A stretch of DNA of 64,000 nt from NCBI RefSeq assembly GCF_900114645.1, contig NZ_FOTR01000005.1, positions 62,001 through 126,000 on the forward strand, read 5' to 3'. Positions 1,351 to 61,519 of this stretch are shown here, piece by piece (the first letter of the stretch is position 1; every line of letters begins with the position of its first letter). Origin of the DNA: Gracilibacillus orientalis. GTDB lineage: Bacteria; Bacillota; Bacilli; Bacillales; Amphibacillaceae. The translations under genes and the position numbers were made by a program. The notes beneath the pieces were generated by a model that ran no database searches, was not told where the DNA came from, and saw nothing but the letters and a program-made list of their open reading frames with translations.

Positions 1351-1405
1351 TTATAACGATGTTAATTGTCCGTAAAATCCCCACTGATAGAAGTCTCACT
1401 TTTAA
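1351..1405 (-). repeat. Dispersed stop-codon-abutting repeat, copy A
   Basis: On the minus strand the copy reads AAGTGAGAC, then CAGTGGGGATTTTACGG, then a degenerate TTAACATCGTTATAA end. The TAA stop of the lyase gene (1402-1404) directly precedes AAGTGAGAC. It is one of ten copies in this window sharing the same block order. Confidence 0.75.
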
Positions 1406-2550
1406 TTATTGATATTAAAATCCGGTAAAGTCTCAAAATTCTTCGGTAAATCAACTAAATATAAATTTCCGTAGCCATTTTTGTCACTGGTAAATAATAA
1501 CTGGCTACCGTCCGGGCTAAATCTGGGATGGGCGTGTACTTTTTGAACATGAAAACTGCAACGGTGTTCACACAACATTTTAGGGTTAGAGAACTCCCCA
1601 TTAACCTGATCCCAGACAATTAATTTATCAAGTGGAGCTCTTCCGTCTATTACTACTCTAGAAAATCCGTGAGAATGGGCATGCCAATTGCGAAAAGAAA
1701 ACTCTACCTCCTCCATGTTTTTATTGTTGTAGTGGATTTTCCCAAAAAAGGCTGTGCCATCCGCTCGAAAACCATGATATCCAATGTTTTCCCCATCTGG
1801 AAACCAGTATTCATGTCCGACCATTTCATAAGGTTCTTTTCGCTCACGAATCTTCCATGTCTCTTGGGTATTTAAATTAAGCCCCCATATTCGGTGATCG
1901 ACAAGTTGCCACGGCCCTTCATGACAGAATGTGATCAGGTTTTTATGTTTTGGTGACGTATTTATGTGAGTGGTAAAATTATGATCTTCGTAAACTACGG
2001 TTGCGTCTCCATCTTCAATGTTTATTTTTAGAATTTGAGAGTATGGTTTTGCTTCCATTAATTCACGATGACCCACATAACCATTCTTTAAATCAATTGG
2101 AAATTTGTTTTTAAAATCCTCATGTAAGCATGTAATAATAAATTTGCCATCCGCAGTACAGTTAATATTACCTCCAACAAGGGATTTATCTCCTTCAAAG
2201 ATTACTCTTTCTTTCAATGTGATTAAATCAATCTCGATAATTTGATGTTCTTTTCTGAAGTAGGCCGTTTGTTCAGTTGGATGTAAACACGCAGATAAAC
2301 TGCCATACGTCGTATCATGATCAGTCAACTGTACAATTTCTCCGGAGGAAATATTAAGACTGAATAAATTTGTTTTATTTTCCCTATCGGAGCAAAATAA
2401 TATCTTATTGCCGTTATCATACCAACCGTTTTCCGTAAAATACAGATGATGACTGTGTCCTGTGTAATCAGTTAATTGTGTTATGGTTACTCCTGAAAAT
2501 CGATCTTCGAAGCTTTTCCGTTCTGCTGGCCATATTGTACTTTTGGACAT
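1402..2550 (-). CDS. ogl: Oligogalacturonate lyase (PL22 family)
   Basis: Cytoplasmic beta-elimination lyase that splits short oligogalacturonides, made by pectin breakdown, into unsaturated monomers feeding the 2-keto-3-deoxygluconate route. The 382-residue length fits the seven-bladed propeller family. Visible are the N-terminal family signature GHSHHLYFTENGWYD (31-45), repeated propeller strands of the type LFCSD/LFTSDKNG, a conserved GHEYWFPDG (245-253) and the metal site Gln336, His339, His341 (QxxHxH, known to bind Mn in characterised members), with further histidines at 290-294. No other pectin genes (kduI, kduD, transporter, polygalacturonase) lie next to it, so this is an orphan copy. 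Its stop touches repeat copy A. Confidence 0.92.
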   Translation of the reverse strand: MSKSTIWPAERKSFEDRFSGVTITQLTDYTGHSHHLYFTENGWYDNGNKILFCSDRENKTNLFSLNISSGEIVQLTDHDTTYGSLSACLHPTEQTAYFRKEHQIIEIDLITLKERVIFEGDKSLVGGNINCTADGKFIITCLHEDFKNKFPIDLKNGYVGHRELMEAKPYSQILKINIEDGDATVVYEDHNFTTHINTSPKHKNLITFCHEGPWQLVDHRIWGLNLNTQETWKIRERKEPYEMVGHEYWFPDGENIGYHGFRADGTAFFGKIHYNNKNMEEVEFSFRNWHAHSHGFSRVVIDGRAPLDKLIVWDQVNGEFSNPKMLCEHRCSFHVQKVHAHPRFSPDGSQLLFTSDKNGYGNLYLVDLPKNFETLPDFNINN

Positions 2551-2805
2551 AGAATTCCAACCCTTTCTTTTTCAAAGATTTACCTGCATAGGTATTTCAT
2601 CGTCTAAATGTAATCGTATTCATTTTGTTGTTCAAAAAGAAGTATTTGTAGTAACTTTATTGTAAGCTATCCTGTTGGTTTACTCAAAGCATTTGGTAGA
2701 CAACTTATGGTTCTTATACAAGTATTACTTTTCTTGCAGGTTTACTCAGTTTTGAATTTTAGTTTGATAGTTTCCGATAAGAAAGCATAAAATTGGAGGG
2801 AGCAT

Positions 2806-3510
2806 ATGAATAGGATAGAATTCATTCGCAATGAAGAAAAGCAGTATCATGAATATTGTTATGATAATTACAAATTATTTGAAAAGGGTTCCTGGTTATA
2901 TAAACCTGTTAAGACAGTAATGGAATTAATACCTTTATTGGAAGATAAAGATCATCTTAATGTTTTGGATTTAGGTGCCGGTATAGGGAGAAATAGTATT
3001 CCTATCGCGGAAAAAATTAAAGGTAAGGGTGGAAAAGTTGTCTGTGTTGATTTACTGGATTCAGCTATTGATAAATTAATAGAATACAGTAAGAAATTTG
3101 ATGTGGAAGATATAATTGAAACAGAAAAGGCTGATATAGGAGAGTATTCAATACAAGATGATGAATATAATTTGATTGTTGCAGTATCTAGCCTGGAACA
3201 TGTTAATTCGGACAATGCCCTTGAAGATACAATTAATCGGATGGTTAAAGGCACCAAAAAAGGTGGTATTAACTGTATTATCATAAATTCAGAAGTAGAA
3301 GAACTGGAAATAGAAACAAATAAGCAGTTAGAAGCACTCATGGAGATCAATATTCCAACAGACGAAATGATAAATAAATTAAATAACATTTATAATGGTT
3401 GGAAGGTCATCAATCAGTTAGTCAAACCGTTGGAATACCAAATTATACGTAATGGAAAACCTGTTTTATTAAAATCGAATGCGATAACATTTGTGGCAAA
3501 GAAGGATTAG
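2806..3510 (+). CDS. Class I SAM-dependent methyltransferase
   Basis: A 234-residue soluble protein with the Rossmann-type methyltransferase fold. Motif I is VLDLGAGIGRNS (about residues 53-64), followed by VVCVDLLDSA with the acidic residue that binds the ribose of S-adenosylmethionine, and a post-motif II segment LIVAVSSLEHV. The start has a good ribosome binding site (GGAGGGAG, 2796-2803). The methyl acceptor is unknown. The next gene, an APH-fold kinase, starts 68 bases downstream on the same strand and may be co-transcribed. An inverted GGTATT/AATACC pair near 3519-3547 is a weak hairpin in the gap. Confidence 0.85.
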   Translation: MNRIEFIRNEEKQYHEYCYDNYKLFEKGSWLYKPVKTVMELIPLLEDKDHLNVLDLGAGIGRNSIPIAEKIKGKGGKVVCVDLLDSAIDKLIEYSKKFDVEDIIETEKADIGEYSIQDDEYNLIVAVSSLEHVNSDNALEDTINRMVKGTKKGGINCIIINSEVEELEIETNKQLEALMEINIPTDEMINKLNNIYNGWKVINQLVKPLEYQIIRNGKPVLLKSNAITFVAKKD

Positions 3511-3578
3511 TATTTTTGAGGTATTCAAAATACAGTATCAATACCTACCTTTCTCAAAATTAAAGTGAGGTGAAATGA

Positions 3579-4874
3579 ATGCTTTTGAAATTCATAGTGT
3601 ATTCAAAAGACAATAAAAGTTTGTTACTTAATCAACTAAACCAAAAGTTTTTTTTACCTGCTTTTGAATTTGATACTTTTCATATAGCGGTCACATCGAC
3701 TATTAATCATTTCTTTATGGAAGAATTCAAATTAAAAACAAACGTACTACGATGCAATTACCAAGAATTGCGTATTTATGAATTAGAAGCATTGGATGAT
3801 TTAAAAAACAATAATAAATATGTTTGGATAAAAATATCATCTATTCCATCACTAAAAGATCAAGTTTCCGACGATAAAAAGGAGCTATTACTTAACGTGT
3901 TGAATAATACATTTAATCGTTCTGTATCATGGTTTGAACCTGGTCGGCAAAAGGAAATGAGATATTGGGTTGAGCAAAAAGTATTTAAAAATGGAAGTCT
4001 TACATTAATACAAATGAGAAGCTGGGAACGAGCAGCATTATTTAAGGTTAAAACTAGTAAAACAAACTATTATTTTAAAGCAGTACCAAAAACTTTTGCA
4101 CATGAAGCACTTGTTCATAGATATATATCGGGACAATACCCTTCATATGTCCCCGAAATCATAGCAATAAATGAAAACAGAAATTGGTATATAATGAGCG
4201 AAATTCAAGGTGATCTTCTTGGAAAGTCTAAAGAGATTGAGCACTGGCAAAAAGCTGTCCATAGAATAATTGATATTCAAAAAAATTCTTATATACATAA
4301 AAAAAGGCTTCAAAAATTAGGATGTCCAGAAAGGCCTTTGGTAGAGGTGCTGAACAATTATTTAGAGCAATCTCTGGAGGGATTAGTCGATAGTAATTAT
4401 ATTTCCAAAGCTAACTACACTGTTTTGAAACAGAGTATACCTTCTATGTTGTCCCTTGTTCATCAATTAGATGACTCGTATTTACCAAAGGCTTTAGATC
4501 ATGGTGATTTGTTTGGCGGAAATATCATCGTCCAAAATGGGCAACCAATTATATATGACTGGTCGGATAGTTCATTAACACATCCATTTCTAAGTGTCGT
4601 GGTAATATTAGAAGAAATAAGTGAAATATTTTCAAACAATCAGAGCAATAGTTTGTTAGAAAGCTATATTAAAGAATGGGAAGAATTTGATACATTTGAA
4701 CATTTACTTAATGAATATCGGATTATTAGAATATTGGCTCCATTATACTATTTGACGGTTTATCAGCAATTTATATTTCCAAACTTCGCTGACAATGTAG
4801 ATAAACAATGGGTAGTTAACGATTATGTAGATCAATGGTTGAATCATATATTTAGATTGTCAGCATTTGATTAG
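3579..4874 (+). CDS. APH-family phosphotransferase (aminoglycoside phosphotransferase-like)
   Basis: A 431-residue protein. The C-terminal two thirds have the APH/choline kinase fold: the catalytic loop LDHGDLFGGNIIV (His308 region, HGDxxxxN) and the metal-binding IIYDWSD about 20 residues later. The N-terminal ~150 residues look like an unrelated or divergent lobe, making the protein longer than resistance-type APH enzymes (about 260-300). In the family this motif set supports ATP-dependent phosphorylation of a hydroxyl on a small molecule; the substrate here is unknown and antibiotic resistance should not be assumed. The start is preceded by GTGAGG at suitable spacing. Confidence 0.75.
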   Translation: MLLKFIVYSKDNKSLLLNQLNQKFFLPAFEFDTFHIAVTSTINHFFMEEFKLKTNVLRCNYQELRIYELEALDDLKNNNKYVWIKISSIPSLKDQVSDDKKELLLNVLNNTFNRSVSWFEPGRQKEMRYWVEQKVFKNGSLTLIQMRSWERAALFKVKTSKTNYYFKAVPKTFAHEALVHRYISGQYPSYVPEIIAINENRNWYIMSEIQGDLLGKSKEIEHWQKAVHRIIDIQKNSYIHKKRLQKLGCPERPLVEVLNNYLEQSLEGLVDSNYISKANYTVLKQSIPSMLSLVHQLDDSYLPKALDHGDLFGGNIIVQNGQPIIYDWSDSSLTHPFLSVVVILEEISEIFSNNQSNSLLESYIKEWEEFDTFEHLLNEYRIIRILAPLYYLTVYQQFIFPNFADNVDKQWVVNDYVDQWLNHIFRLSAFD

Positions 4875-5165
4875 TTATTACTGTTTCTAATGTGGTATAA
4901 GAAAGTTACTGTTAAAGAAAAAATCTGATTTGTAAAATCTATAGGAGCAGGGGTAAGATATATAGATTAAAAAAATCTTTTCATATTAAAAGAGTTATGA
5001 TTTTAACAACATACAATGCTTGTTCAAAAAAAGATATATAAATGCTAAGGTAGAATATATATAGACGTGAGGAATGACAACAATCATTATTACCTAAGTA
5101 TCCTTTGATTAAATTCTTAATTCACTAACTATTTGTTAAGCAGAAAAGGAGAGGAGCTAATTCCA

Positions 5166-5615
5166 TTGAAAAGAAATTTTTGGTTCATATCTTTGGGAAT
5201 GGTTTGGACCGTTATTTTTGCAAGTATGAGTTTCTATTGGGCAATGGGTGGTTTACTTGGTGTTCGATCCCTAGGAGGGGCAATATATGAAATGTCGTTA
5301 AATCCTGCTCCCTCGTTTGTTGTTGTAATATGGTTAACTGGTGTATTTAAACTATTTGGTTTTCTTTTGTTACTGATGATTCTTATTAAATGGCATAATA
5401 TTATAATAACTAAAACCCTTTATTACATGACAAAAATTGCAGGAGTAGCTTTATTTCTATACGGCTTACTCAATTTTATCACGATTACATTAAGTGCGAT
5501 CAATATTCTAGATTTTGACTTGGATTCCTCTGCAACTTTTTGGAGGTTAGTTTTTTGGGAACCTTTTTGGATGTTTGGCGGTATATGTTACTTTTTTTCA
5601 GTTAGGAAGTTATAA
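5166..5615 (+). CDS. DUF3995 family integral membrane protein
   Basis: Small membrane protein of about 149 residues with four hydrophobic helices. The motif SFYWAMGG in the first helix followed by an ExSLNPAP loop is typical of the DUF3995 family, whose function is unknown. I take the TTG at 5166 as start, because GGAGAGGAG (5149-5157) lies 8-9 bases upstream; a longer frame from ATG 5133 has no ribosome binding site. The upstream gap 4875-5165 (291 bases) is AT-rich and holds no recognised element. The gene converges on the minus-strand kinase gene; repeat copy B lies between them. Confidence 0.75.
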   Translation: MKRNFWFISLGMVWTVIFASMSFYWAMGGLLGVRSLGGAIYEMSLNPAPSFVVVIWLTGVFKLFGFLLLLMILIKWHNIIITKTLYYMTKIAGVALFLYGLLNFITITLSAINILDFDLDSSATFWRLVFWEPFWMFGGICYFFSVRKL

Positions 5616-5650
5616 TGATTGTTGACTGCCAGGCTGCTTAGCAAAGATAA

Positions 5651-5687
5651 ACGTGAAACCCCCACTGATGGAGGTCTCACTTTATAA
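5651..5687 (-). repeat. Dispersed stop-codon-abutting repeat, copy B (short)
   Basis: On the minus strand the copy reads AAGTGAGACCTCCATCAG then TGGGGGTTTCACG, and the terminal hairpin block is missing. The stop codon TAA of the downstream-ending kinase gene is formed by the repeat's own ATAAAG end (TTA TAA AGTGAGAC). Confidence 0.75.
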
Positions 5688-6239
5688 TTTAAACTCCTTT
5701 TTTAACAAGCTCGCGACTTCTTCTGCACTTAGTTCAGTATTGTTTATTCTTAGGTGATTTTTTCGTTCAATTTCCCTTGGCTCTGAATTCAATCTGTAGG
5801 CATTTAAGGAGTTAAGGAGCTCTTCTTCAGACTGTTGAATATTTCTTTTTGTTGGTTTCTGTTCAAGTCTGTTAGGTGTTTTATTACGTATTACTCTCTG
5901 ATCGACATCAGCTTCTAACTCAACGAAGTATATTTCAGCATTCTCAGATTCAAATATATGACAGATATTTTTCACAAAATTCCAATCTTCGTCTTCATTA
6001 AATGCCCATACATAGGTGAAGATCATTCCATAGTTTTCGCTTTTCGCAAAGGATTTCATTATTTCCTCGCGAAACAGCGTTGATAATCTCCATGTTTCAG
6101 TTTCGAATCCGAAGAATGGCTCTAGTAAATCGATGGTCATATGGTTATGTAATAATTTTAATTCTGTTATCTTGGCTAGCTCTTGTCCGACTGTCATTTT
6201 TCCAACAGCTTGTGGTCCAAAAATTAAGACGAATTTCAT
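5682..6239 (-). CDS. P-loop kinase-like AAA/shikimate-kinase-fold protein
   Basis: A 185-residue cytoplasmic protein with an N-terminal Walker A loop GPQAVGKMT (residues 8-16), followed by a helix and the HNHMTIDL segment typical of small nucleotide or metabolite kinases annotated as AAA family ATPase. A late RVIRNKTPNRLEQKPTKRN basic segment resembles a lid region. The phosphate acceptor is unknown. It ends inside repeat copy B and starts 58 bases downstream of the Nudix gene, in the same direction, so the two may form an operon of small phosphate-handling enzymes. Confidence 0.75.
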   Translation of the reverse strand: MKFVLIFGPQAVGKMTVGQELAKITELKLLHNHMTIDLLEPFFGFETETWRLSTLFREEIMKSFAKSENYGMIFTYVWAFNEDEDWNFVKNICHIFESENAEIYFVELEADVDQRVIRNKTPNRLEQKPTKRNIQQSEEELLNSLNAYRLNSEPREIERKNHLRINNTELSAEEVASLLKKEFKL

Positions 6240-6297
6240 TTTTTTACTCCTTTTTGTTAATCTCCTATATTGCTTCTATCAAAGATAGTATTTCATA

Positions 6298-6912
6298 TTA
6301 AAAATGCCGAGAAATTTGTTCCACAACTTGTTGTAAATAAGCTTTCCGATGTGGAACAATATTGTCTAAACTTATGTTTCTATTGATGGTGGTTTTCTGA
6401 CCGATTTCATTGATTTCAAAACCTTCCACTTTCATTTCATTCTTCTTGTCAAAGCACAAATCAGAAAAATCATTAATCGTTGTCTTTACCATTCCAGAAA
6501 CTTCTTCTTGTTGTAAGTTGAATTCATCGGTATCTTTTAAGTGGTATAGATATACATTAGCCCATTCCATGTCCAGGAAGTTATTTGTTTCGATGGGGTC
6601 TTCTAAAACTCCTAATGATATTAACTCATCAAAATTCACATCTATTCCCATTTCTTCATGTATTTCTCTGACACCATCTGTAACAGTTTCAGTTGAGAGT
6701 AAATGACCAGCAGCAGTTATGTCAAAAAGGTTAGGGAAATCTTTTTTTTCATTGCTACGTTGTTGTAAGTAAATATAATTTATGCCATCTTTTTGATCGA
6801 CGAACCAGCACTGGAATGTTTCATGCCAATATCCGCGTTTGTGCACTTCATCCCTATCTGCGATGCCTAATTCATTTCGTTTGCCATCATAAATTTTTAG
6901 TTCTTCGCTCAT
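6298..6912 (-). CDS. Nudix hydrolase (isopentenyl-diphosphate isomerase-like)
   Basis: A protein of about 204 residues carrying a full Nudix box, GHLLSTETVTDGVREIHEEMG (GX5EX7REUXEEXGU), in the middle of the fold; it would hydrolyse a nucleoside-diphosphate-linked compound with Mg. The N-terminal layout (KIYDGKRNELG, then RGYWHETFQCWF) is that of the IPP-isomerase-like Nudix branch, which also holds many uncharacterised hydrolases. The start is the ATG at 6912 because AAGGTGG lies eight bases before it; the longer frame begins with a GTG inside that ribosome binding site. It is upstream of, and codirectional with, the P-loop kinase gene. Confidence 0.85.
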   Translation of the reverse strand: MSEELKIYDGKRNELGIADRDEVHKRGYWHETFQCWFVDQKDGINYIYLQQRSNEKKDFPNLFDITAAGHLLSTETVTDGVREIHEEMGIDVNFDELISLGVLEDPIETNNFLDMEWANVYLYHLKDTDEFNLQQEEVSGMVKTTINDFSDLCFDKKNEMKVEGFEINEIGQKTTINRNISLDNIVPHRKAYLQQVVEQISRHF

Positions 6913-13199: not shown

Positions 13200-13237
13200 A
13201 TGATTAAAATATATATTTTACGTAAAGGGTGAATTGG

Positions 13238-14197
13238 ATGAGAGCGGATCGATTAATTAATATCATGGTTTTGTTGCAGAACAGAGGTAAAATGACTACG
13301 AAGGAATTGGCTGGTGAATTAGAAGTCTCAGACAGAACGATTATTAGAGACATGGATGCACTAAGTACAGTAGGAATACCAGTGGTTGCAGAAAGAGGCA
13401 AATGGGGAGGTTGGCGCTTATTAGATAACTTTCGAAGTAAATTAAGTACGATAACATTAGAGGAGATGAAAGCTTTATTTGTGTTTCCTTCCAAAGGGTT
13501 ACTTCAAGATTTGGGGTTAACCCATTCGATAGATCCTAGACACAATCTACTTGTATCCCTTCCAGTTCATTATCAAGCGGATGCTCAAGCAATGTGGGAT
13601 AGAATTCATATAGATGTTAGTACTTGGAGGCAATCTAAAGAAAAAGTGACTGCCTTTGAAACCATTCAACAAGCTGTTTTGGGGAATAAAAAGCTGAAAA
13701 TTCACTATGAGAAGGCTGATGGAAACAAAGAAGATAGATTGATTGAACCATTAGGCTTAGTTGCAAAAGGTAACAGATGGTATCTTGTTGCATCAAGAAA
13801 TGGAGAATTACGAAATTATCGAGCATCAAGAATTCATTCCGCAAAAATGGAAATGGAAAGATTTGAACGTCCAGCTAATTTTCATTTAGCTACGTATTGG
13901 GAACAATCAAAAGACAACTTTATCCGGAATTTGCCCGCTTATGATGTCGATGTAGAGATTGCCCCGTCCATCATAAAGAGAATAACGTTTACAGGAAAAT
14001 TTGTCCAAGTGATCGAGAAGAAAAGTGCAAATGAACAAGGTTGGCTTCCTGCAGTTTTGCGTTTCAATGATCGACAGGAAGCCATAGAGTATATTTTAGG
14101 ATTTGGTGATCAAATCAAAATAGTCTCACCTGCGCATCTTACAGATGAAATTGTGTCGTTGGCTAGGAGAGCTATTAGATTTCACCAAAATAGATGA
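13238..14197 (+). CDS. HTH/WYL-domain transcriptional regulator (YafY family)
   Basis: DNA-binding regulator of about 319 residues: an N-terminal HTH_11/DeoR-type helix-turn-helix (KMTTKELAGELEVSDRTIIRDM) and a C-terminal WYL ligand-sensing region (RLIEPLGLVAKGNRWYLVA, then RNYRASRIHSA). ATG 13238 is chosen over GTG 13229 because AAAGGGTGA precedes it at proper distance. Divergent to the DHRS1-like SDR, the likely target. Its TGA stop (14195-14197) is followed at once by TAAAGTGAGA of repeat copy C. Confidence 0.88.
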   Translation: MRADRLINIMVLLQNRGKMTTKELAGELEVSDRTIIRDMDALSTVGIPVVAERGKWGGWRLLDNFRSKLSTITLEEMKALFVFPSKGLLQDLGLTHSIDPRHNLLVSLPVHYQADAQAMWDRIHIDVSTWRQSKEKVTAFETIQQAVLGNKKLKIHYEKADGNKEDRLIEPLGLVAKGNRWYLVASRNGELRNYRASRIHSAKMEMERFERPANFHLATYWEQSKDNFIRNLPAYDVDVEIAPSIIKRITFTGKFVQVIEKKSANEQGWLPAVLRFNDRQEAIEYILGFGDQIKIVSPAHLTDEIVSLARRAIRFHQNR

Positions 14198-14251
14198 TAA
14201 AGTGAGATTTCCATCAGTGGGGATTTACGAAACGATTAGCACCATGATAAA
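14198..14251 (+). repeat. Dispersed stop-codon-abutting repeat, copy C
   Basis: The only copy with the TAAAGTGAGA end on the plus strand. It starts with zero bases between it and the stop codon of the plus-strand WYL gene and continues CATCAGTGGGGATTTACG, then ACGATTAGCACCATGATAA. The orientation follows the neighbouring gene, as in the minus-strand copies. Confidence 0.8.
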
Positions 14252-15628: not shown

Positions 15629-15735
15629 TTTATCACGGTGCTAACCGTCTGTTATCCCTACTTCATGCTTCAAGTAACACAAGGAAGCTAAGTGGGGCAG
15701 ACGCTAACACCCTGATCATAGTCTCGCTTTATAAA
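15629..15735 (-). repeat. Dispersed repeat, copy D (long form)
   Basis: The longest copy, about 107 bases. The plus strand opens TTTATCACGGTGCTAACCGT and closes GTCTCGCTTTATAAA. Between these ends are about 60 extra bases, including CTTCATGCTTCAAGTAAC and AAGGAAGCTAAGTGGGGC, which can pair internally. No minus-strand gene ends here, so this copy does not abut a stop codon. It shows that the short copies are probably internal deletions of a longer structured element. Confidence 0.75.
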
Positions 15736-19972: not shown

Positions 19973-20008
19973 CTTCGTCCACATGAAAATATGTGAACGG
20001 AGTTTTTT
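19973..20008 (+). terminator. Terminator of the GDPD gene
   Basis: CTTCGTCCACAT (19973-19984) pairs with ATGTGAACGGAG (19990-20002) with one mismatch, followed by a T-run. Repeat copy E begins directly at its end. Confidence 0.7.
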
Positions 20009-20065
20009 GTGATGGTGCTAATAGTCCTAAAACCCCCGCCGCTAATGGAAGTCTCACTTTATAAA
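20006..20065 (-). repeat. Dispersed repeat, copy E
   Basis: The plus strand reads GATGGTGCTAATAGTCC, AAAACCCCCGCCGCTAATGG, then AAGTCTCACTTTATAAA. It lies between two plus-strand genes and follows the GDPD terminator, so this copy does not abut a stop codon on its own strand. Confidence 0.7.
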
Positions 20066-30332: not shown

Positions 30333-30412
30333 TTATATATTCCTCCGTTTTCAAAAGCATATATTAACTGTTTAGTCTTTTTCTCGTACATTGCGATTCT
30401 TGCAATTTCTTT

Positions 30413-30490
30413 GGTGCTAATCGTCCGTAAAACCCCTACTTTAAGGATCAAGTAAGGGACAAAGACCCTTACTGAGGGAAGTCTCACTCT
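30413..30490 (-). repeat. Dispersed repeat, copy F (longer form, supplies a stop codon)
   Basis: On the minus strand AGTGAGACTTCC and CAGTAAGGG lead into an extra hairpin (AGTAAGGG with CCCTTACT), then GTAGGGGTTTTACGG and ACGATTAGCACC. The stop codon of the TetR gene is the TGA inside GAGTGAGAC, so the repeat itself ends the reading frame. Confidence 0.75.
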
Positions 30491-31080
30491 ATTTTCTCCT
30501 TCAGTCCCATTAGCATAGTATCCAATCCAAATTGAAATTCTTTCTCCATATCTGGAATGGTTAGATGAGTAGGAGTTGATGAGTGAGGTGTTTCCTTACT
30601 TATTCCTAAAAATCGATATTCCTCTAAGATAAAAGAAGTAATGTAGATATTGTATAGCCATAAAGAGGAGAAGGCATTTTCTTTATTCATTCCCGCATTT
30701 ATAAAAATTTGATGAAGCCTCTCGATTAGTTGTATGCGATATGGTGTAGTTGGTGCTGTTTCTGATAATACAACAGCCGCATCTTTAATGGATAAAAGCT
30801 GATCCCGCCATTGATTTGCAAACTGTCTTAATTGCTCGTCCCAATTCTCTTTCTCTACAGGAAATTGTATGTCTTTACATATTTCATCAGCTACCAGTTC
30901 AAGTAATTCTTTTTTATTTTTAATATGCCAATAAAGCGAAGCACTTTTAATACCTAATTTTTCAGCAACTTTTCTTATTGTGATACTTTTGTAACCTTCT
31001 AATTGAAGCACCTCAAAAGCTGCTTGGACAATTTTAGATTGATCAAGCATTTTATGGTGGGATTCGTTATGTGTTGTCAA
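30484..31080 (-). CDS. TetR-family repressor with tetracycline-repressor-type C domain
   Basis: About 198 residues. The N-terminal helix-turn-helix (SITIRKVAEKLGIKSASLYWH, with the SASLYWHIKNKKELL recognition part) is very close in type to classical TetR, and the C-terminal part has the TetR_C layout. The start is TTG 31080, eight bases after AAAGGAG; TTG 31086 is too close. It is divergent to a small membrane protein, and two tet-operator-like palindromes lie between them over overlapping promoters. The stop codon is supplied by repeat copy F. Confidence 0.88.
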   Translation of the reverse strand: MTTHNESHHKMLDQSKIVQAAFEVLQLEGYKSITIRKVAEKLGIKSASLYWHIKNKKELLELVADEICKDIQFPVEKENWDEQLRQFANQWRDQLLSIKDAAVVLSETAPTTPYRIQLIERLHQIFINAGMNKENAFSSLWLYNIYITSFILEEYRFLGISKETPHSSTPTHLTIPDMEKEFQFGLDTMLMGLKEKIE

Positions 31081-31147
31081 TATCAAGTCTCCTTTCTGGT
31101 CGAATAACGTTATTCTCCATTTATGGATTGATTTTTAAAAGAATCTC

Positions 31148-34752: not shown

Positions 34753-34805
34753 TTTATCACGGTACTAACCGTCTGTAAGACCCCCACTGATCATAGTCTC
34801 ACTTT
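34753..34805 (-). repeat. Dispersed stop-codon-abutting repeat, copy G
   Basis: Plus strand: TTTATCACGGTACTAACCGT, then CTGTAAGACCCCCACTGATC, then GTCTCACTTTG. On the minus strand it begins three bases after the TGA stop of the helicase gene (34807-34809). It is one of the best-conserved short copies. Confidence 0.8.
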
Positions 34806-34806
34806 G

Positions 34807-37800
34807 TCAGAACAATATTTCTCGAATATCTTCTTCTGTTAGTGTGGACGATGATTTTTTCTTCGAATCAATGACTTCTTCTATGAGGAATCTCTTTTGT
34901 TCTTGCAAATCATTCATTTTTTCTTCAATTGTACCGCGGGCAACAAGTTTGATGACTTGTACGACACTCGTCTGACCCATACGGTGGGCACGGTCAGCCG
35001 CTTGTTCTTCCACAGCAGGGTTCCACCAACTGTCATATAAAATCACTGTGTCAGCACCTGTCAGGTTGAGGCCTGTTCCACCTGCTTTCATTGAAATGAG
35101 AAACAAATCGGATTCACCTGCATTGAATCGATCACATCGTTCCATACGTTCTTCTGATGGGGTTTGTCCATCTAAATACAAAAAGGACCTTCCTTGGATG
35201 GCTAAATCTCTACCTATCATCTCAAGCATTTTCGTGAACTGAGAGAAAATTAATACGCTTCTTCCTGCAAGCCTGGATTCTTCGAGAATCTGTTTTAACT
35301 GTTCAAATTTAGCAGAACTCCCTTTATAACCCTCTACAAACAAGGCAGGATGACAACAAATCTGTCGCAATCGAGTTAGGCCGGCAAGGATTTTGATCCG
35401 ATTTTTCTGTAATGTGTCCTTGTCTAGATGCTTTAACGTATCGTGTCGAAGTTTTGCCAAATAAGCGGCATAAAGCTCCTTTTGGTCTGGTAGCAATTCG
35501 ACAGATTCTCTTGATTCAAGTTTTTTAGGTAACTCTGTTAGTACATCCTCTTTTACCCTGCGAAGTAAAAAGGGCTTGATCCGCCGAGCAATCTGTGTTC
35601 TCGTGAGATTACTATACTCCTTTATCCCTTGAAATAGCTCAGGAAAGACAATATGAAAAATCGACCATAGCTCCTCCTGATTATTCTCTACTGGTGTACC
35701 AGTTAAGGCGAAACAATTATCAGCCTGTATCTTTTTTACTGCCTTTGCTGTTTGTGTAACAGGATTTTTAAAGGCTTGTGCTTCATCAAAGAAAACGGTG
35801 TGAAAGGTTTGTTTCTTATACCAATCTATATCCATTCGTAACAACTGGTAAGAAGTAATAACAACGTCCATTTCCAATGCCTCTGTCCTTTTTTTGAACC
35901 GTTTTGTTCTATTTCCATCTACAATAGTCACTTGAATATCGGGTGCGAATTTCCTTATCTCACTATGCCAGTTATACATTAAAGATGATGGGCAAACAAT
36001 AAGAGTAGGAAGTTTCTGCTTACGGATAGTAGGAAGTTCAGACAAAATAAAAGCGATACTTTGTAGTGTTTTGCCAAGTCCCATATCATCTGCAAGAATT
36101 CCTCCAAATCCATGGCTAGCAAGTGTTTTAAGCCATTTATAGCCGTGTATTTGATAATCTCGTAATATTGCCTCTAAACTATTCGGGACTGTAAATGTCT
36201 GATTATCAGGATTTTGGATATTGTGTAGGAACTGACGAAACGATTGCTCGAATGTGAATACATGATCATCAGCGGAGTCTAGCAGCTGCATTCCTTTAAG
36301 GGTTGGTACATGTAATCCGTTTACCACGTCTTCTTGATCCTGGATGGGAGCAGCACTCCTCAAAAAACGTTGAAGCTCTTCAAACTCTCTTGTTTCCAAT
36401 GACAATAGTGCTCCGTCTCGCAAACGATAGTATTTTTGCTTTTCCTCCAAAGCCGATAAAATTTCACGTATTTGTTGGTCAGGAATGCCATCCATTTCAA
36501 ATTTGAATTCCAACCAATTGGTCCGCTCCTTTTGGATCTTTACTTTAATCTTTGGGCGGGGCTTTTCTTTGAATACCCTATTTCTCACAGCGGTTGTAGC
36601 ATATACTTGTACTAATTTTTGAATCTTCGGGAGCATATGGTATAAAAAGTCATATTCCAGTGCTTCATTATGCAAAAAGTATCCGCTATCTGTCTTGATA
36701 AATTGACTTTCATCCATCATTTGTAGGATAGCTTCTTCTTTCTCCTCATCTCTTATCAAAATAGATGCTGTCTCGATTTGGTCATTGTCCAATGGATTGA
36801 TCAGGATATTTCCATAATGAAATTCTAACCCCGCAAGAAGCCGGTTTTTTACTCGATCCAAATATAATTTTGTGACTAAAGGAGTTTTCATGATTCGGTT
36901 GGTGACAGCACCATGTAAATGGACTTGACCTAATCTTTTTAATATAGGTAGCCCTTTTTCTATGAAAAACTCTGCTTGAGTTGGAGGAATCGGAATTTGT
37001 TTGGTTTCAGAACTATCCAGCATCTGAATGAGCTCAGATAGATACTGAAAATCCTCCTCATTTAGGTGTGTTAAAATACCGTCAAACAGAAGAGCTCTAT
37101 ATGCATGTAACACTACGATCTTATCTAATCCTTTAATGGTGAGTAGGTAATCTTGATTGCGAGTTTGTGTAAAGTAAAATGATAATGGCGATGTTTCATG
37201 ATCCGAAAAGTGAAGTTTGTCGATTATTTCCTTCCCATGTGCTAACTTCACAACTGGTGCTTTAGTGAGTAAGGGCACAAGTTGTCCCCAGGGAGATGGT
37301 GGAATAACTAATAGCTGATCTATCATTTTATATTCAAATTTGTCTATTAACAGGTCATAGCCATATGCCTTTTCATCATTAATTACTTGAATAAGTTGTT
37401 GTATAATGTCGTCTGTTTCTTTTGGAAAACAATGTACCTCTGGATCGTAAGTGAATGAAGTAGTTAATACATAGCTATCACTTTCTTTCACTTGTTTAAG
37501 AAAGGTGCGGATATTTTTAACTTTCGTAGTGCCAATCTCAACTTCTATTCCAAACAGAGATTGCCCTTTATTGTTTGTAATAAGTTTGCACGTGAAAGCT
37601 AGTGGAAGCACATTTCGACTTTCAAATCGTGGCTGTTGGGCACTGGGACGGATCGGGCGATTATCAAACAGGTTCATTAGTCCTTCTGAAATATCGGGAC
37701 TAGACAAAGAGTCTGCATGAGGATTTAATTCTCTTCGCGGATGTTCAGATATCGCCAGTAAAACGGCCGCTACATGCTGACAGTCTTTTTTTATAGAAGC

Positions 37801-41148: not shown

Positions 41149-41230
41149 TTTATTACGGGACTAATCGTCTGCCATTCTTGTTTATTCGTAAAGAATCTTT
41201 AAGTACCCGGATTCCTTTAGTCTCAAGTAA
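41149..41230 (-). repeat. Dispersed repeat, copy H (divergent long form)
   Basis: Plus strand opens TTTATTACGGGACTAATCGT and closes TTTAGTCTCAAGTAAA with about 45 extra bases between, including TTCGTAAAGAATCTTTAAG. It lies about 17 bases beyond the stop of the CGNR gene. Overall it is the least conserved copy. Confidence 0.55.
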
Positions 41231-47297: not shown

Positions 47298-47340
47298 AAT
47301 CGCCCCCTAGGATTCGTCTATCCTTGGGGGCGATTTTTTT
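47298..47340 (+). terminator. Strong terminator of yuaF-floT
   Basis: AATCGCCCCC (47298-47307) pairs with GGGGGCGATT (47326-47335), extended by AGGAT/ATCCT, followed by a T-run. Repeat copy I begins at its end. Confidence 0.92.
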
Positions 47341-47394
47341 ATCACGTTGCTAATCGTCGGTACAACCCTCGCTGATGGTTAGCCTCACTTTATC
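47338..47394 (-). repeat. Dispersed repeat, copy I
   Basis: Plus strand: TTTATCACGTTGCTAATCGT, then CGGTACAACCCTCGCTGATGG, then AGCCTCACTTTATC. It lies 37 bases beyond the stop of the MarR gene and immediately after the flotillin terminator. Confidence 0.7.
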
Positions 47395-54591: not shown

Positions 54592-54607
54592 AGGAAGGGT
54601 GATTAAA

Positions 54608-55506: not shown

Positions 55507-55511
55507 AAAAG

Positions 55512-55961: not shown

Positions 55962-55986
55962 GATTTGACTCCTCTCCAATTATAAA

Positions 55987-56313: not shown

Positions 56314-56357
56314 GATTCTAGCCTCCGATCGTAGTATAGTTGCTTACATAATCTACG

Positions 56358-56382: not shown

Positions 56383-56400
56383 TTAGATGTTGTTGGTTTT

Positions 56401-56413
56401 CGTTTCAGAAACG
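56401..56413. promoter_or_regulatory. Perfect palindrome upstream of the sugar-sensor operon
   Basis: CGTTTC-A-GAAACG lies 48-60 bases before the start of the sugar-binding protein gene. It could be bound by the operon's own AraC-type response regulator, but that is only by position. Confidence 0.3.
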
Positions 56414-56460
56414 GTATGCTATCATAATTCGTATCCATCATTGATGAACGGGAGGATGAC

Positions 56461-57441
56461 ATGAGAAGTAGTAAATTAATGAATATTATACTTATTTTTT
56501 GCTTTATTATAGCTGTGAGCTTTTCGATATATTTTTATATACAGTCTAAAGGCTTTCAATCCAAAATAATGGATGCGACCTCAAAAGAAACAGTACCGAC
56601 TTATCATTTTGTTTTAATCGGAGAAGAAATGGATCATGATTACTGGCGGTTAGTTGGTGAAGGGGCAAAAGATATGGAGGAAAAATACGATGTGTTTGTT
56701 GAATATGAAGGACCAAGGCGATCCAATCCAGAAGAACAATTGAAGCTTCTCGACATTGCGATGAAATCCAAAGTGGACGGCATCATTGTTCAAGCATTGA
56801 ATGATGAGTTTTTGCCAGTGATTAATCAAGCGGTTGAGCAAGATATCCCTGTTATAACCATTGATACTGATGCTCCTGATAGTAAGCGATCTGCCTATAT
56901 CGGTACGGATAATTATGAAGCTGGTAAACTCGCTGGTAAAGCATTGGTAGAAGATACTGCGGGTAAAGCTACTATTGGAGTCATCACGGGTAGTTTTGAC
57001 AATGCTCATCACCAATTACGTGTGGAAGGGTTTAGAGATATTGTCGAGCAAGAACCTGGAATTGAAATTGTATCGATTGAGGAGTCGAATATTACAAGAG
57101 TGATTGCGGAAGAAAAGGCGCATAATATGTTAAGTGATTATCCTGACATTACAGCTTTATATGGCACGAGTGCATTAGATGGTATTGGTATGGTTGCTGC
57201 TGCTGAATCATTAGGATTGGAAGAATCCCTATATATGATCGGCTTCGATACACTGCCAGCAAATATGGCACTGCTTGAACAGGAAAAAATGGATGTATTA
57301 ATTGGGCAAAAACCATATGAAATGGGATATCGCAGTGTAGAGTTAATGCTGGATTTGGTGAATAATAAAAAAGTACAAGATGTTTACCATACCAATGCAT
57401 CCGTGGTAAGAAAAGAGGATATAGGTGATTTTGATGATTAG
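56461..57441 (+). CDS. Membrane-anchored sugar-binding protein (Peripla_BP_4, sensor type)
   Basis: A 326-residue extracellular ligand-binding protein. The N terminus is an uncleaved-looking anchor (IILIFCFIIAVSFSIYFY) with no lipobox. The rest is a type I periplasmic-binding fold (FVLIGEEMDHDYWRLVGEGA, then KSKVDGIIVQALN, then TIDTDAPDSKR). It is the first gene of an operon with a histidine kinase and a response regulator. In described three-component systems such as XylFII-LytS-YesN, a protein like this binds sugar and signals to the kinase. Its ligand here is unknown. Confidence 0.88.
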   Translation: MRSSKLMNIILIFCFIIAVSFSIYFYIQSKGFQSKIMDATSKETVPTYHFVLIGEEMDHDYWRLVGEGAKDMEEKYDVFVEYEGPRRSNPEEQLKLLDIAMKSKVDGIIVQALNDEFLPVINQAVEQDIPVITIDTDAPDSKRSAYIGTDNYEAGKLAGKALVEDTAGKATIGVITGSFDNAHHQLRVEGFRDIVEQEPGIEIVSIEESNITRVIAEEKAHNMLSDYPDITALYGTSALDGIGMVAAAESLGLEESLYMIGFDTLPANMALLEQEKMDVLIGQKPYEMGYRSVELMLDLVNNKKVQDVYHTNASVVRKEDIGDFDD

Positions 57442-58843
57442 GATTAGATCAAAACTACTTATATACTTCGTTGCTATCCTTGTATTAGTGATTATTTTAT
57501 TTTTCATTCGTGAACAAAGTGCACAAAGAATTGTAGAATTACATGATGAACGTTCCGATCATTATTTTTTGTTAAACGAAATAACGAATAATACTGACCA
57601 GACCTATCAATCACTACAAATTTATGTTCATGAGCCAACAGATGAAAACCTCCAATACTATAAGGAGGACAAGCAACAATTAAACGAACTACAAGAGCAG
57701 TTCGTAATGGCTGCAGAAGATAGTATAGATAAGAAAAACTATGTCCATTTATTAACAAGCTTTCTGGAATTAACAGATCAAACTGCAGAAGGTGTAGCGC
57801 AAGATAACATTGAGCAATATTCCAATTATTTAAATGAAGCAGATAATAGTGCAACCTATATTCATGAGAAAACATTAGAGTTAATAAATTCAGAGCTTAC
57901 TGTTTATCAGAATTTAATAGAACTAGAAGACCAACGGGTGCAATCTTCCAAAAATATGGGGACCGCTATATTTATTTCTGTGATAATACTAAGTATCTTG
58001 TTTGCCTTGTGGTTTTCTAACGGGATTACAAGGGCGATTGAACGTCTAACAGGTGCAGCAAAAGAAATATCGCAAGGGAATTATACCGTGGAAGATGTCG
58101 TTGTGCCACAAAAAGATGAACTAAAAATCTTAACGGAAACGTTTAATCAAATGAAGTGGAATATTGTTGAGGCGATTCGGGAAATGAAGGAAAAAGCTCG
58201 GATGGCTCAATTGTTAAAGGAAATGGAATTAAAAAGCTTACAAAATCAAATTAATCCCCATTTTCTATTTAACACGTTAAATACGATTTCCAAAACATCC
58301 TATATTGAGGGAGCAGAACGAACCAGTGATTTAATTTCTTCTGTTTCTGCACTGCTTCGTTATAATATCGGTAGTCTTGACAGGGAAACTTATTTGAGAG
58401 ATGAAGTAGAGATTGTGAAGGAATATTTTTTCATTCAAAAAACGAGGTTCGGTGACCGGGTAACATTCCATCAAGATATTGAGGAGGATTGTTTGCAAAC
58501 ATCAATACCTTGTTTGACATTACAGCCTATCATTGAGAATGCCTTTATGCATGGTATTGAAGAAATGGCAGATGGTGCAGAAATTACACTTGCCATTTAT
58601 CAAAAGGAAGAAAAAGTGTGGATCGAAATTAGCGATAACGGTGTGGGTATGGATCAGGAAACGATTGATCGCTTACTAACAGCGGATGAGAATAGTGAAA
58701 CGAACAGAAAGGGACATTCCACTGGCATCGGCATGCGAAATGTAATAGACCGTTTGAAGTTATTTGATAGAGAAAGTGATGTATCCATTCAATCAGAGCT
58801 TGGTAAAGGAACGAAAGTCACCATTAAGTTACGAAAGGAGTGA
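57434..58843 (+). CDS. LytS/YesM-type sensor histidine kinase
   Basis: About 469 residues. Two membrane helices (about 5-25 and 177-197) flank an extracellular helical sensor, followed by HAMP (RAIERLTGAAKEISQGNY), the His-kinase motif NPHFLFNTLN (His276) and an HATPase domain (IENAFMHGIEEMA, then ISDNGVGMD and STGIGMRNV). Its start overlaps the stop of the sugar-binding gene by eight bases, indicating coupling. ATG 57434 is preferred over GTG 57425. It likely receives a signal through the binding protein. Confidence 0.93.
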   Translation: MIRIRSKLLIYFVAILVLVIILFFIREQSAQRIVELHDERSDHYFLLNEITNNTDQTYQSLQIYVHEPTDENLQYYKEDKQQLNELQEQFVMAAEDSIDKKNYVHLLTSFLELTDQTAEGVAQDNIEQYSNYLNEADNSATYIHEKTLELINSELTVYQNLIELEDQRVQSSKNMGTAIFISVIILSILFALWFSNGITRAIERLTGAAKEISQGNYTVEDVVVPQKDELKILTETFNQMKWNIVEAIREMKEKARMAQLLKEMELKSLQNQINPHFLFNTLNTISKTSYIEGAERTSDLISSVSALLRYNIGSLDRETYLRDEVEIVKEYFFIQKTRFGDRVTFHQDIEEDCLQTSIPCLTLQPIIENAFMHGIEEMADGAEITLAIYQKEEKVWIEISDNGVGMDQETIDRLLTADENSETNRKGHSTGIGMRNVIDRLKLFDRESDVSIQSELGKGTKVTIKLRKE

Positions 58844-58847
58844 TAAA

Positions 58848-60374
58848 ATGATAAAAGTTATGCTTGTAGATGATGAAGCGATTGAGCGCGAAGGAATCCG
58901 GATGATTCTCAGTAGAAATCGATCAAATGCTGAAATCGTAGCAGAAGCAAAAAATGGTAATGAAGCGGTTGAGCTTGCTACGCTTCATCATCCTGACATT
59001 ATTTTTATGGATATTAAAATGCCGGAATTTGATGGGTTGGTTGCGATTGAGAAGATTCTTCAAACATTACCTGAAACAAAATGTGTGATGGTATCCGCAT
59101 TTGATACTTTTCAATATGCTAAACGAGCAATGAAATTCGGAATTAAAGAATATCTGTTAAAGCCAAGCAAGATATCAGAGATACTGGAAGCTTATGATCG
59201 GATGGTTGCAGAACTATCTGAACAAAATGATGTAAACGAACGGTTAGAACAGGCGAATTCATTAGTCGAAATGGACTTTATTTTAACGCTGATGATGGAT
59301 CATGTACATGAGTTTAATACAGAAGATTGGACAAAATGGCTGGATGTCGAGGATACGAAAGGATTTGCAGCTGTATTTTCTTTTCAGGCAGAGATACTAA
59401 GGCCAGACCGTGAACAAAAAGGTAATTGGTATCGCACACTCAAAGATGGATTATCAAGGCTTCCTTACCATGCTTTCGTGGGGCCACTGACTGGCTATCA
59501 AGTTCCGATTTTAGTTAAATATGAAGCATATACCCTTGATCAGTTTGCTAGAGATGCTATTCAAGATGTTCAGCGTGATTTACACGATTGCCAGCTCTAT
59601 GTTGGAATAGGAGCAATTATCACTGATTTACAGGACTTTTCTCGTTCATACCAAGAAGCACTATATGCTTTGGAACAAGTACAATCCCACCCTGGCGCTA
59701 AATATCAAGTTTTTAATGAACAAATGGCTGAAAAAAGAAAGGAACGGATCCATTTTGAAGAAGAGAAAGAATTGCTTCATGCCATTAAAAAAGGAGATAG
59801 TCAGCAAGGGACGTATTTATTTGGCCGGTATTTTCAATCGATTCAACAACATGCTAATTATCAAGTACCAATCATTCAAAAAACGGTCGAAAACTTTTTT
59901 ATTGTATTAACGAGAATGACAAAAGAGCTTGGTCTTGATCAGGATATCCAAATGGGCTTTGATCAGTTCGAAACAGCGACACAGATCAAGGAAGCTGCTA
60001 AAGCTCACTTGCAAAGCGTTATTAAACAGATACGAGATTGGCGTTCGACCGGAGTCCATGGTCTGTTGATGCAAGCAAAGGATTATATAGAATCACATTA
60101 TCAAAGAAATATAACACTGGAGGAAGTAGCAGAGGAAGTAGGACTGAGCTCTTACTATTTGAGCAAGCTGTTTAAAGAACATTTCGAGATTACCTTTATT
60201 GAATATGTTACACAAACCAGACTGACAAAGGCAAAAGACTTATTATTAGATGATCGCATATCACTGAAAGAAATTGCTTTAACAATCGGATATAAAGACC
60301 CCAATTATTTCAGTCGAGTATTTAAAAAAGAGACAGGTCTAAGCCCGAGTGAATATCGCAAGCAGTATTCTTAA
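58848..60374 (+). CDS. YesN-type response regulator, AraC family
   Basis: A 508-residue regulator. The receiver domain has Asp8-Asp9, phospho-acceptor Asp55 (FMDIKMP) and Lys105 (LLKPSK). A long middle part of unknown fold (about 130-400) precedes the AraC-type double HTH (NITLEEVAEEVGLSSYYLSK, then LKEIALTIGYKDPNYFSRVF). ATG 58848 is right behind AAAGGAG; a longer frame inside the kinase gene is not credible. No transporter gene follows, so its target is elsewhere. Confidence 0.93.
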   Translation: MIKVMLVDDEAIEREGIRMILSRNRSNAEIVAEAKNGNEAVELATLHHPDIIFMDIKMPEFDGLVAIEKILQTLPETKCVMVSAFDTFQYAKRAMKFGIKEYLLKPSKISEILEAYDRMVAELSEQNDVNERLEQANSLVEMDFILTLMMDHVHEFNTEDWTKWLDVEDTKGFAAVFSFQAEILRPDREQKGNWYRTLKDGLSRLPYHAFVGPLTGYQVPILVKYEAYTLDQFARDAIQDVQRDLHDCQLYVGIGAIITDLQDFSRSYQEALYALEQVQSHPGAKYQVFNEQMAEKRKERIHFEEEKELLHAIKKGDSQQGTYLFGRYFQSIQQHANYQVPIIQKTVENFFIVLTRMTKELGLDQDIQMGFDQFETATQIKEAAKAHLQSVIKQIRDWRSTGVHGLLMQAKDYIESHYQRNITLEEVAEEVGLSSYYLSKLFKEHFEITFIEYVTQTRLTKAKDLLLDDRISLKEIALTIGYKDPNYFSRVFKKETGLSPSEYRKQYS

Positions 60375-60582
60375 CAGCGGGTAGAGGAGCGCTTTTTGTC
60401 TGAGAATATAATCTTGACAGGGTGGAGGTCAATTGGGCTCATTGGCGAATAAGCGAACATGTAAAGCTTTAGAAACCTATAAACACTAACCATGATTTCG
60501 ATGTGTTTTCATCAAAATGACTCGTAAAAATTGAAACAAAAGCTAGAATGAAAACTTATCCTAATCATCAGAAGATTTAAAC

Positions 60583-61443
60583 CTATTTTTTTGTTTTTTT
60601 ACGATAACCTGAAGGAGTAGTCCCTATAAATTTTTTAAACGTGCGATAAAAATGTGGTGTACTATCAAATCCACTTAGCTCGGCAATATGAGCAACAGGA
60701 TAGTCCGTTTTCCACAATAGCTCTTTAGCTTTATAGGTTCTTTTTTTGTTCAAATACACAGTAAGCCCAATGCCAGTTACTTCTTTGAAGACTCTACTGA
60801 AATGAGCTGAACTAACGTGTGCTTTCTCAGCTAATAGGCTTAGGGATATATTACCTTGAAGGTTATGGTCAATAAACGCGAATATTTCATTCATCCAAAA
60901 GCGGTTAAAGTTTTCTTCCCTAAATGCTTGATCTATTTGCTCTATACTTAAGCGAGATAAATAAAGTAATATTTGATGGGTAATTAAGATAGCGGCATGA
61001 ATAGAGCCCATTTGTTTTTCGCGTAATTCCTTATCTATATCATTAAGAAACTTTTCAAAAGTCACTTGTTTCCTTTCTGAAAGAGATATTTTATAGTGTT
61101 TGTGCTTCTTAATTTTTTCAACTATAAATATATAGGAAAAATTTTCATCAATCGGTATGGTTTGAATTAATGCAGGACTAAAAAAAACGACAGATGAAGT
61201 AACTAAATCATCCTGATAGGGTACAGCATGATGAATAGTGTCGTTGGGAACCAAGAATACATCCCCTTGGTTCATATAATAAAGCGTGTTATTAATAAAA
61301 AAAGTACCTGTACCTTTGTGAACATAAATAATCTCATGAAAATCATGCATATGGGTTGGTAATTCATTTTGGGGTTCCTTACTGCCTTTATAAACAAAGG
61401 AAAAAGGAAATGAGGAATTAGCATTTTTTTTAATAGCCTTCAT
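60583..61443 (-). CDS. AraC-family regulator with cupin sensor domain
   Basis: A regulator of about 286 residues. The N-terminal cupin (LPTHMHDFHEIIYVHKGTG, then YYMNQGDVFLVPND) binds a sugar or sugar acid; the C-terminal double HTH is ISLSLLAEKAHVSSAHFSRV and PVAHIAELSGFDSTPHFYRT. It is divergent to a dehydrogenase-led sugar-acid cluster and likely activates it. ATG 61443 lies after AGATAGGTGA. Transcription ends near a 208-base gap (60375-60582) where I see no clear terminator. Confidence 0.9.
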   Translation of the reverse strand: MKAIKKNANSSFPFSFVYKGSKEPQNELPTHMHDFHEIIYVHKGTGTFFINNTLYYMNQGDVFLVPNDTIHHAVPYQDDLVTSSVVFFSPALIQTIPIDENFSYIFIVEKIKKHKHYKISLSERKQVTFEKFLNDIDKELREKQMGSIHAAILITHQILLYLSRLSIEQIDQAFREENFNRFWMNEIFAFIDHNLQGNISLSLLAEKAHVSSAHFSRVFKEVTGIGLTVYLNKKRTYKAKELLWKTDYPVAHIAELSGFDSTPHFYRTFKKFIGTTPSGYRKKTKK

Positions 61444-61462
61444 AAGTATCACCTATCTCTAA

Positions 61463-61519
61463 TTTATCACGGTGCTAACCGTCTGTAAGATCTCCGTTGA
61501 TCATATTCTCACTTTATAT
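61463..61519 (-). repeat. Dispersed repeat, copy J
   Basis: Plus strand: TTTATCACGGTGCTAACCGT, then CTGTAAGATCTCCGTTGATC, then ATTCTCACTTTATATC. It lies within the regulatory space between the divergent AraC and dehydrogenase genes, close to the AraC start. It is nearly identical to copy G in its first twenty bases and does not abut a stop codon. Confidence 0.75.

What the first reader, a model, noticed from the sequence alone, without database searches (positions are those of the whole stretch)
1351..61519. Dispersed structured repeat family that abuts stop codons
Ten copies in 64 kb (A-J; 1351, 5651, 14198, 15629, 20006, 30413, 34753, 41149, 47338, 61463) share ordered blocks: ATAAAGTGAGAC, then CAGTGGGGGTTTTACGG, then a hairpin ACGGTTAGCACCGT and GATAAA. 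In five copies (A, B, C, F, G) the element begins within 0-3 bases of the neighbouring gene's stop codon, always with the same element end next to the gene, on either strand; two more (H, I) lie within 40 bases. Such placement suggests target preference for gene ends, or a post-transcriptional role at mRNA 3' ends. There is no T-run after the hairpin, so it is not a simple terminator. The hairpin end and long forms recall right ends of IS200/IS605-type elements or non-autonomous derivatives, but that is inference.
Basis: partly seen in the sequence, partly recalled or inferred. Interest (0 to 1): 0.75.

Follow-up and report, generated by a model that had tools for sequence, protein, structure and literature searches.

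The report
TTTAT-targeting noncoding mobile DNA family
These repeats are mostly shortened remnants of a roughly 150-base piece of mobile DNA without genes, present in many Bacillota, that inserts at the short sequence TTTAT (ATAAA on the other strand), folds into two conserved hairpins, and tends to point in a direction set by DNA replication, although the enzyme that moves it is unknown.

Summary
In detail: all ten copies are real and belong to a family of about 100 copies in this genome. Most window copies are short (about 55 bp) deletion relics of a 145-160 bp element with two hairpins and ATAAA at each end. At 6 of 19 comparable orthologous places a related genome has one ATAAA where the occupied site has two, so this is mobile DNA inserting at TTTAT/ATAAA. 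The long form's fold is supported by covariation (15 of 42 pairs changed on both sides). A covariance model finds relatives in 24 of 299 genomes of the phylum, 21 outside the class. In six single-contig genomes 140 of 174 listed copies have the TTTAT strand on the lagging-strand template (16 of 19 in one genome where flanking genes point opposite ways): the signature of single-strand insertion as in IS200/IS605. No gene-carrying copy was seen, and four element-bearing relatives lack any detected Y1 transposase. Stop-codon adjacency is real (24 of 103 versus 85 of 1131 ATAAA sites) but largely mechanical: ATAAA contains TAA, and the element brings its own TAA and TGA. The IS200/IS605 hint is partly supported; an mRNA 3'-end role is not needed. 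Of the published families found, bcr1 of Bacillus cereus is closest in behaviour.

The parts
1350..1404 (-). copy A, short form, 55 bp; overlaps the stop codon TAA of ORF 1402-2550 (-)
   Evidence: G033 has its stop at the same codon, as I read the alignment
5651..5685 (-). copy B, five-prime half only called; its ATAAA contains the stop TAA of ORF 5682-6239 (-)
   Evidence: G033 and G028 have a stop at the same codon, as I read
14197..14251 (+). copy C, short form, 55 bp; starts at the stop TGA of ORF 13229-14197 (+)
15629..15732 (-). copy D, intermediate form, 104 bp, retains much of the P2/P3 hairpin
20006..20062 (-). copy E, short form, 57 bp
30405..30492 (-). copy F, intermediate form, 88 bp; the neighbouring gene (30484-31086, -) ends at the element's own TGA
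34753..34807 (-). copy G, short form, 55 bp; absent from the orthologous places of G033, G035 and G028
41149..41225 (-). copy H, degenerate; G033 has a recognisable copy at the same place
47338..47393 (-). copy I, short form with a weaker five-prime block
61463..61517 (-). copy J, short form, 55 bp; clean empty site with one ATAAA in G033, also absent from G028 (whose diverged site reads GGTTAT)

Best explanation
The repeats are copies, mostly internally deleted, of a non-autonomous mobile DNA element of about 145-160 bp: ATAAA-[GTGARACT-hairpin P1-TTAGTTGAAC-long hairpin P2/P3]-ATAAA. SHOWN: insertion at a TTTAT/ATAAA site leaves one copy of the word at each end; the long form's fold is conserved by covariation; orientation follows the replication fork; occupied sites shared by two species hold differently deleted forms. 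INFERRED: the TTTAT strand is taken out of and put into single-stranded DNA on the lagging-strand template, 3' of TTTAT, by a Y1 (HUH) TnpA-like enzyme acting in trans, which reads the hairpins as left and right ends and the near-invariant TAA 5' of each hairpin (on that strand) as guides. Gene ends are hit because ATAAA often contains the stop TAA, and insertions a few codons upstream survive because the element begins with TAA and TGA stops.
For: Empty sites: of 73 paired copies, 19 had both flanks in the G033 sequence held, and 6 of these 19 show exactly one ATAAA against two in the occupied site; 2 of 42 G033 copies tested have an empty site in the part of G000 held (one of the two G000 sites reads ATGAA). 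Fold, 30 long copies: 94.8% of cells paired, 15 pairs and 88 cells with double changes; on four of five measures 0 of 500 shuffles are as high, on the fifth 3 of 500; slid controls 39-49% paired (the structure was drawn from this alignment, which favours it over the slid versions). Replication: TTTAT strand on the lagging template in 60 of 75 listed places (G033, p 1.6e-7), 44 of 56 (G032), 13 of 15 (G023), and outside the class 13 of 14 (G253), 5 of 7 (G173), 5 of 7 (G214). In G033 copies with gene context: 47 of 66, and 16 of 19 where the two flanking genes point opposite ways. The strand and guide layout agree with IS200/IS605 as described in PMC6006769 (abstract and passages); TTTAT is a listed target of IS200/IS605-type IStrons (PMC4227781, passages). 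TTA beside the hairpins is near-invariant: 27, 29, 28 of 30 after P1 and 30 of 30 three times after P3. In-place deletion: C6:174939 and C6:12860 are 54 bp here and longer in G033.
Against: Y1_Tnp (PF01797) is not found in G023, G028, G033 and G034, and in this genome only as a 35-of-121-position fragment, although all four have 17 or more element matches. None of 30 Y1 loci is an autonomous version. IS200/IS605-type IStrons are described as making no target duplication, with variable 3' flanks (PMC4227781); here ATAAA is at both ends, which fits only if the right end itself ends in TTTAT. The TTA beside P3 is partly paired in P2, so its conservation need not mean a guide. With leading-strand neighbours the bias is weak (17 of 31). 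Stop enrichment (odds ratio 2.7 for TAA inside ATAAA, p 0.005) is more than the target word alone predicts.
Confidence: 0.6

Rival explanations
1. Mobile DNA moved by site-specific recombination or by a duplex-DNA transposase that duplicates 5 bp, as proposed for bcr repeats of the B. cereus group.
For: ATAAA at both ends and a single ATAAA at empty sites; head-to-tail arrays sharing one ATAAA; the B. [quoted passage not shown]
Against: No inverted repeats at the ends by inspection. Replication-strand bias in six genomes is not expected of a duplex mechanism. Where both end words differ from ATAAA they match in 1 of 7 copies, though later mutation could hide this.
Confidence: 0.25
2. A conserved regulatory RNA element at mRNA 3' ends, kept by selection at gene ends.
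For: Covarying fold; excess beside stop codons; 84 of 165 and 62 of 155 bcr repeats in two B. cereus strains were found in transcripts (PMC3446304, passages).
Against: Copies come and go between related species at the same gene ends; many are deleted relics; only 24 of 103 starts touch a stop; orientation follows replication more than genes: with lagging-strand neighbours 14 of 16, with leading-strand neighbours 17 of 31 copies have the lagging orientation.
Confidence: 0.05
3. An RNA-mediated (retrotransposed) structured element.
For: Conserved fold with variable extra hairpin arms, some of which match the Rfam RNA family Bacillaceae-1.
Against: No reverse-transcriptase partner was searched for, so this is open; Bacillaceae-1 itself is mostly elsewhere: 4 of 30 of its sampled matches have an element end nearby.
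Confidence: 0.07

Closest known systems
bcr1 (group A bcr repeats) of the Bacillus cereus group
   Same: Noncoding, intergenic, 11 to 130 copies per strain, TTTAT motif, mobility by an unknown enzyme (PMC6542083 and PMC3446304, passages); size 147 or 167 nt (PMC2267715, passage).
   Different: bcr1 is described as restricted to the B. cereus group; this family is in many genera and other classes. The bcr1 sequence could not be read, so homology is untested; of two long forms used as blastn queries one found 4 plasmid records, none of the B. cereus group, and the other none.
REP/REPIN with TnpA-REP (RAYT), and non-autonomous IS200/IS605 derivatives
   Same: Hairpins, guide-like word 5' of the hairpin foot, insertion linked to the lagging strand (PMC6006769, abstract and passages; PMC3116915, passages).
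   Different: REPs are described as 21-65 nt and species-specific, found with a tnpA-REP gene and in large groups tagged GTAG (PMC6006769, passages; PMC3733652, title and passages); here about 150 nt, one alignable fold across classes, TTTAT target, no Y1 gene found in several host genomes.
Bacillaceae-1 RNA (RF01690)
   Same: Dispersed in the same order of bacteria; sometimes nested inside long copies of this element.
   Different: Mostly elsewhere: 26 of 30 sampled matches show no element end nearby.

Membership tests
IS200/IS605 non-autonomous element | Insertion 3' of a short T-rich target on the active strand | tested here: met
   TTTAT; 6 of 19 comparable sites clean. Which strand is active is inferred from the orientation bias
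IS200/IS605 non-autonomous element | Orientation bias towards the lagging-strand template | tested here: met
   140 of 174 listed copies in six single-contig genomes (sum)
IS200/IS605 non-autonomous element | Subterminal hairpins with guide tetranucleotides 5' of the foot | tested here: inconclusive
   hairpins and near-invariant TAA present; pairing with the cleavage site not tested
IS200/IS605 non-autonomous element | No target duplication, variable 3' flank | tested here: inconclusive
   ATAAA at both ends; could be a right end that itself ends in TTTAT
IS200/IS605 non-autonomous element | Y1 transposase source with matching ends | tested here: not met
   30 Y1 loci examined of the many matches in 119 genomes
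bcr1 repeat | Sequence homology to bcr1 | not tested
   bcr1 sequence not held
bcr1 repeat | TTTAT repeats at the ends, noncoding, about 150 bp | tested here: met
DDE-transposase MITE | Terminal inverted repeats | tested here: not met
   ends GTGAAAC... and ...GCGGG are not inverted repeats, by inspection of the alignments
Rfam RNA family | Match to a covariance model | tested here: not met
   no gathering-level match in the window; in the loci no match to the element's own core, only to Bacillaceae-1 inserts

The most novel reading that the evidence does not exclude
A Bacillota-wide family of gene-less, two-hairpin mobile DNA that moves through single-stranded DNA at the replication fork without an IS200/IS605 transposase, driven by an unrecognised or housekeeping single-strand recombinase; bcr1-like repeats would be one branch of it.
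Probability: 0.25. Interest if true: 0.85.

Novelty: new variant of a known kind. Interest (0 to 1): 0.62.

Why it matters
It unites scattered short repeats of Bacillota genomes into one structured mobile family with a defined target, defined ends and a replication-coupled orientation, and it makes the open question of what moves bcr1-like repeats directly testable. It also shows how a repeat can come to abut stop codons without any regulatory role, a caution for reading such placement as function.

Tried and rejected
Rfam: no match for the element core. Phage records: no blastn match to a long form; plasmids: none for window copy G. Autonomous copy with a gene: in 149 loci the longest five-prime to three-prime pair is 492 nt; starts without a recognised end were not followed. 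Y1 loci as source: of 30, three had an end-like match (L394 and L420 weak, L402 strong), and shuffled loci gave 2; L402 holds a 120-aa Y1 frame beside two element five-prime ends, not between paired ends. Bacillaceae-1 RNA as a part of this element looked strong in 18 loci chosen for long copies (14 of 14 matches inside) but failed on 30 loci chosen without regard to the element (2 with both ends, 2 with one). Coding orientation as cause of the orientation bias: rejected on the G033 context table. RNAalifold on the ten window copies gave no base pair, I think because most have lost one arm of each hairpin. Neighbouring genes scanned (8) are unrelated to one another. Literature searches on bcr1, on TTTAT with MITE or target duplication, on Bacillus interspersed repeats and on dispersed repeats in these genera listed no paper that I recognised as describing this family; I saw listings, and passages of the papers cited, within the held open-access library only.
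Full report
OBSERVATION. The ten copies exist where stated. The genome (4.61 Mb in 29 contigs, unnamed; Bacillales by its relatives in named records) holds about 100: 67 pattern matches against 0 reversed controls, 122 model matches including split long copies, 103 five-prime and 100 three-prime ends by position matrix in the 711 kb examined. Of 103 five-prime ends 73 pair with a three-prime end; 44 of these are 54-58 bp and 20 are 141-156 bp, the rest between or outside.

ANATOMY. The long form of this genome reads about ATAAA-GTGAGACTATGATCAGTGGGGG..CCCCCACTGATCAT-TAGCGAAAC-TTATCAGGGTGTTAGCGTCTGTTATCCCCCACTT..AAGTGGGGG-TCTTACAGACGGTTAGCACCGTG-ATAAA; the commoner Bacillales version starts ATAAAGTGAAACTTC and ends GCGGGATAAA. 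The first hairpin (P1) is followed by a long hairpin (P2 capped by P3) that reaches to the end. The short form is what a deletion between the GTGGGGG of P1 and the GTGGGGG of P3 would leave. Two orthologous sites hold differently deleted forms in two species: C6:174939 is 54 bp here and longer, with P1 kept, in G033, and C6:12860 is 54 bp here and longer in G033. The window's ACGGTTAGCACCGT hairpin is the basal part of the three-prime side. Short copies folded alone do not beat shuffles; of nine window copies only D does.

FOLD. In 30 long copies from named Bacillales records and this genome, 94.8% of cells pair, 15 of 42 pairs and 88 cells have changes on both sides; on four of five measures no shuffle of 500 is as high, on the fifth (further pair types) 3 are; sliding the partners drops pairing to 39-49%. 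These 30 were picked by hand from 34 non-redundant long copies plus three of this genome, and the structure was drawn from the same alignment.

MOBILITY. Both flanks of 19 of 73 paired copies were found in the G033 sequence held; 6 of the 19 give a clean empty site with exactly one ATAAA: window J, C13:71269, C14:377625, C14:512094, C19:79361, C20:55005. Three sites are shared, and ten are unclear because the sequence between the flanks has diverged. In the other direction 2 of 42 G033 copies have an empty site in the part of G000 held; in one of them G000 reads ATGAA instead of ATAAA. Window copy G is missing from G033, G035 and G028.

STOP CODONS. 24 of 103 element starts lie from -9 to +5 of a same-strand stop, against 85 of 1131 noncoding ATAAA sites (odds ratio 3.7, p 2.6e-6, own ORF caller). 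Twelve have the stop TAA inside ATAAA (52 of 1131 in the null, p 0.005), and four end at the TGA of the element's GTGA. Relatives show both routes, as I read the printed sequences: the native stop is at the same codon for A and B, it lies 1 nt upstream of the element at C20:55005, and at C14:512094 the gene's last codons were replaced by the element's TGA. A moderate excess remains; I suspect, without a test, that insertions upstream of genes are removed by selection.

REPLICATION. In G033 the first frame of the contig reads as DnaA (recognised by eye), and the GC skew turns between 2.56 and 2.64 Mb. Orientation is 10+/25- before and 35+/5- after 2.6 Mb. G032 gives 44 of 56 and G023 13 of 15 with origin and terminus placed by skew samples. 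In three genomes outside the class, with a DnaA-like frame at the start and the terminus set at the contig midpoint (skew agrees), 13 of 14, 5 of 7 and 5 of 7 agree; the two small samples are not significant alone (p 0.45 each). In G033, with flanking genes on the leading strand 17 of 31, on the lagging strand 14 of 16, divergent 10 of 12, convergent 6 of 7 have the lagging orientation; all contexts 47 of 66. So the fork, not the genes, sets the main direction, with an added pull towards gene sense that fits the stop-codon insertions. On the lagging-strand template the element reads TTTAT-[...]-TTTAT.

RANGE. The exact pattern occurs in 119 stretches of named genome records (scan stopped at its limit), in genera such as Niallia, Cytobacillus, Lysinibacillus, Oceanobacillus, Gracilibacillus, Priestia and Peribacillus. 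Model R1 finds the family in 62 of 159 genomes of the own family and 14 of 17 of the genus. The structural model R2 finds 24 of 299 genomes across the phylum, 21 outside the class (at most 10 candidates scored per genome). Seven out-of-class loci were read: all show the two-hairpin layout at 130-155 nt, and 6 of 7 have ATAAA at both ends. That the phylum is Bacillota is inferred from the named genera. In 149 loci no paired copy exceeds 492 nt; longer ones carry extra hairpins.

ENZYME. Y1_Tnp occurs in 119 of 159 genomes of the family but not in G023, G028, G033 or G034, which have 17 to 27 element matches in the capped search; G036 has 10 Y1 matches and 4 element matches, G026 has 15 and 0. 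The enzyme may have been lost, be diverged, or be of another kind; other recombinase families were not searched.

READING. The strand, the target and the hairpin-plus-guide layout match what the literature says of IS200/IS605 (PMC6006769, abstract and passages), so it most likely works like one; membership is not established.

Noticed in passing
L423-L452 (RF01690 loci): Rfam's Bacillaceae-1 'sRNA' behaves like a dispersed repeat: 198 of 397 genomes of the order match, many with 12 matches (12 being the number scored), sometimes nested in this element (4 of 30 with an element end nearby).
   Followed up: partly
G000 C27:219795 upstream flank; G033 many places: A second dispersed repeat of about 150 bp (containing GGCCGCCCACTTCAACTCCTGTGGGACTCG) borders some copies and has more than ten matches in G033.
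   Followed up: no
L310 (CP079755.1, 221561-221624): A partial copy of the element sits on a plasmid recorded as Klebsiella grimontii pNY3A; assembly contamination or transfer from Bacillota.
   Followed up: no
L091 (NZ_JAPVBI010000007.1): One copy in a 4.6 kb contig filed under Modestobacter, probably contamination.
   Followed up: no
L105, L127, L137 long copies: Very long copies carry tandem hairpin units of a GAGCCTGATTGATTTTTCTAAGGGCTGAAGCCCTAAGAAAAACC type, a further module family.
   Followed up: no
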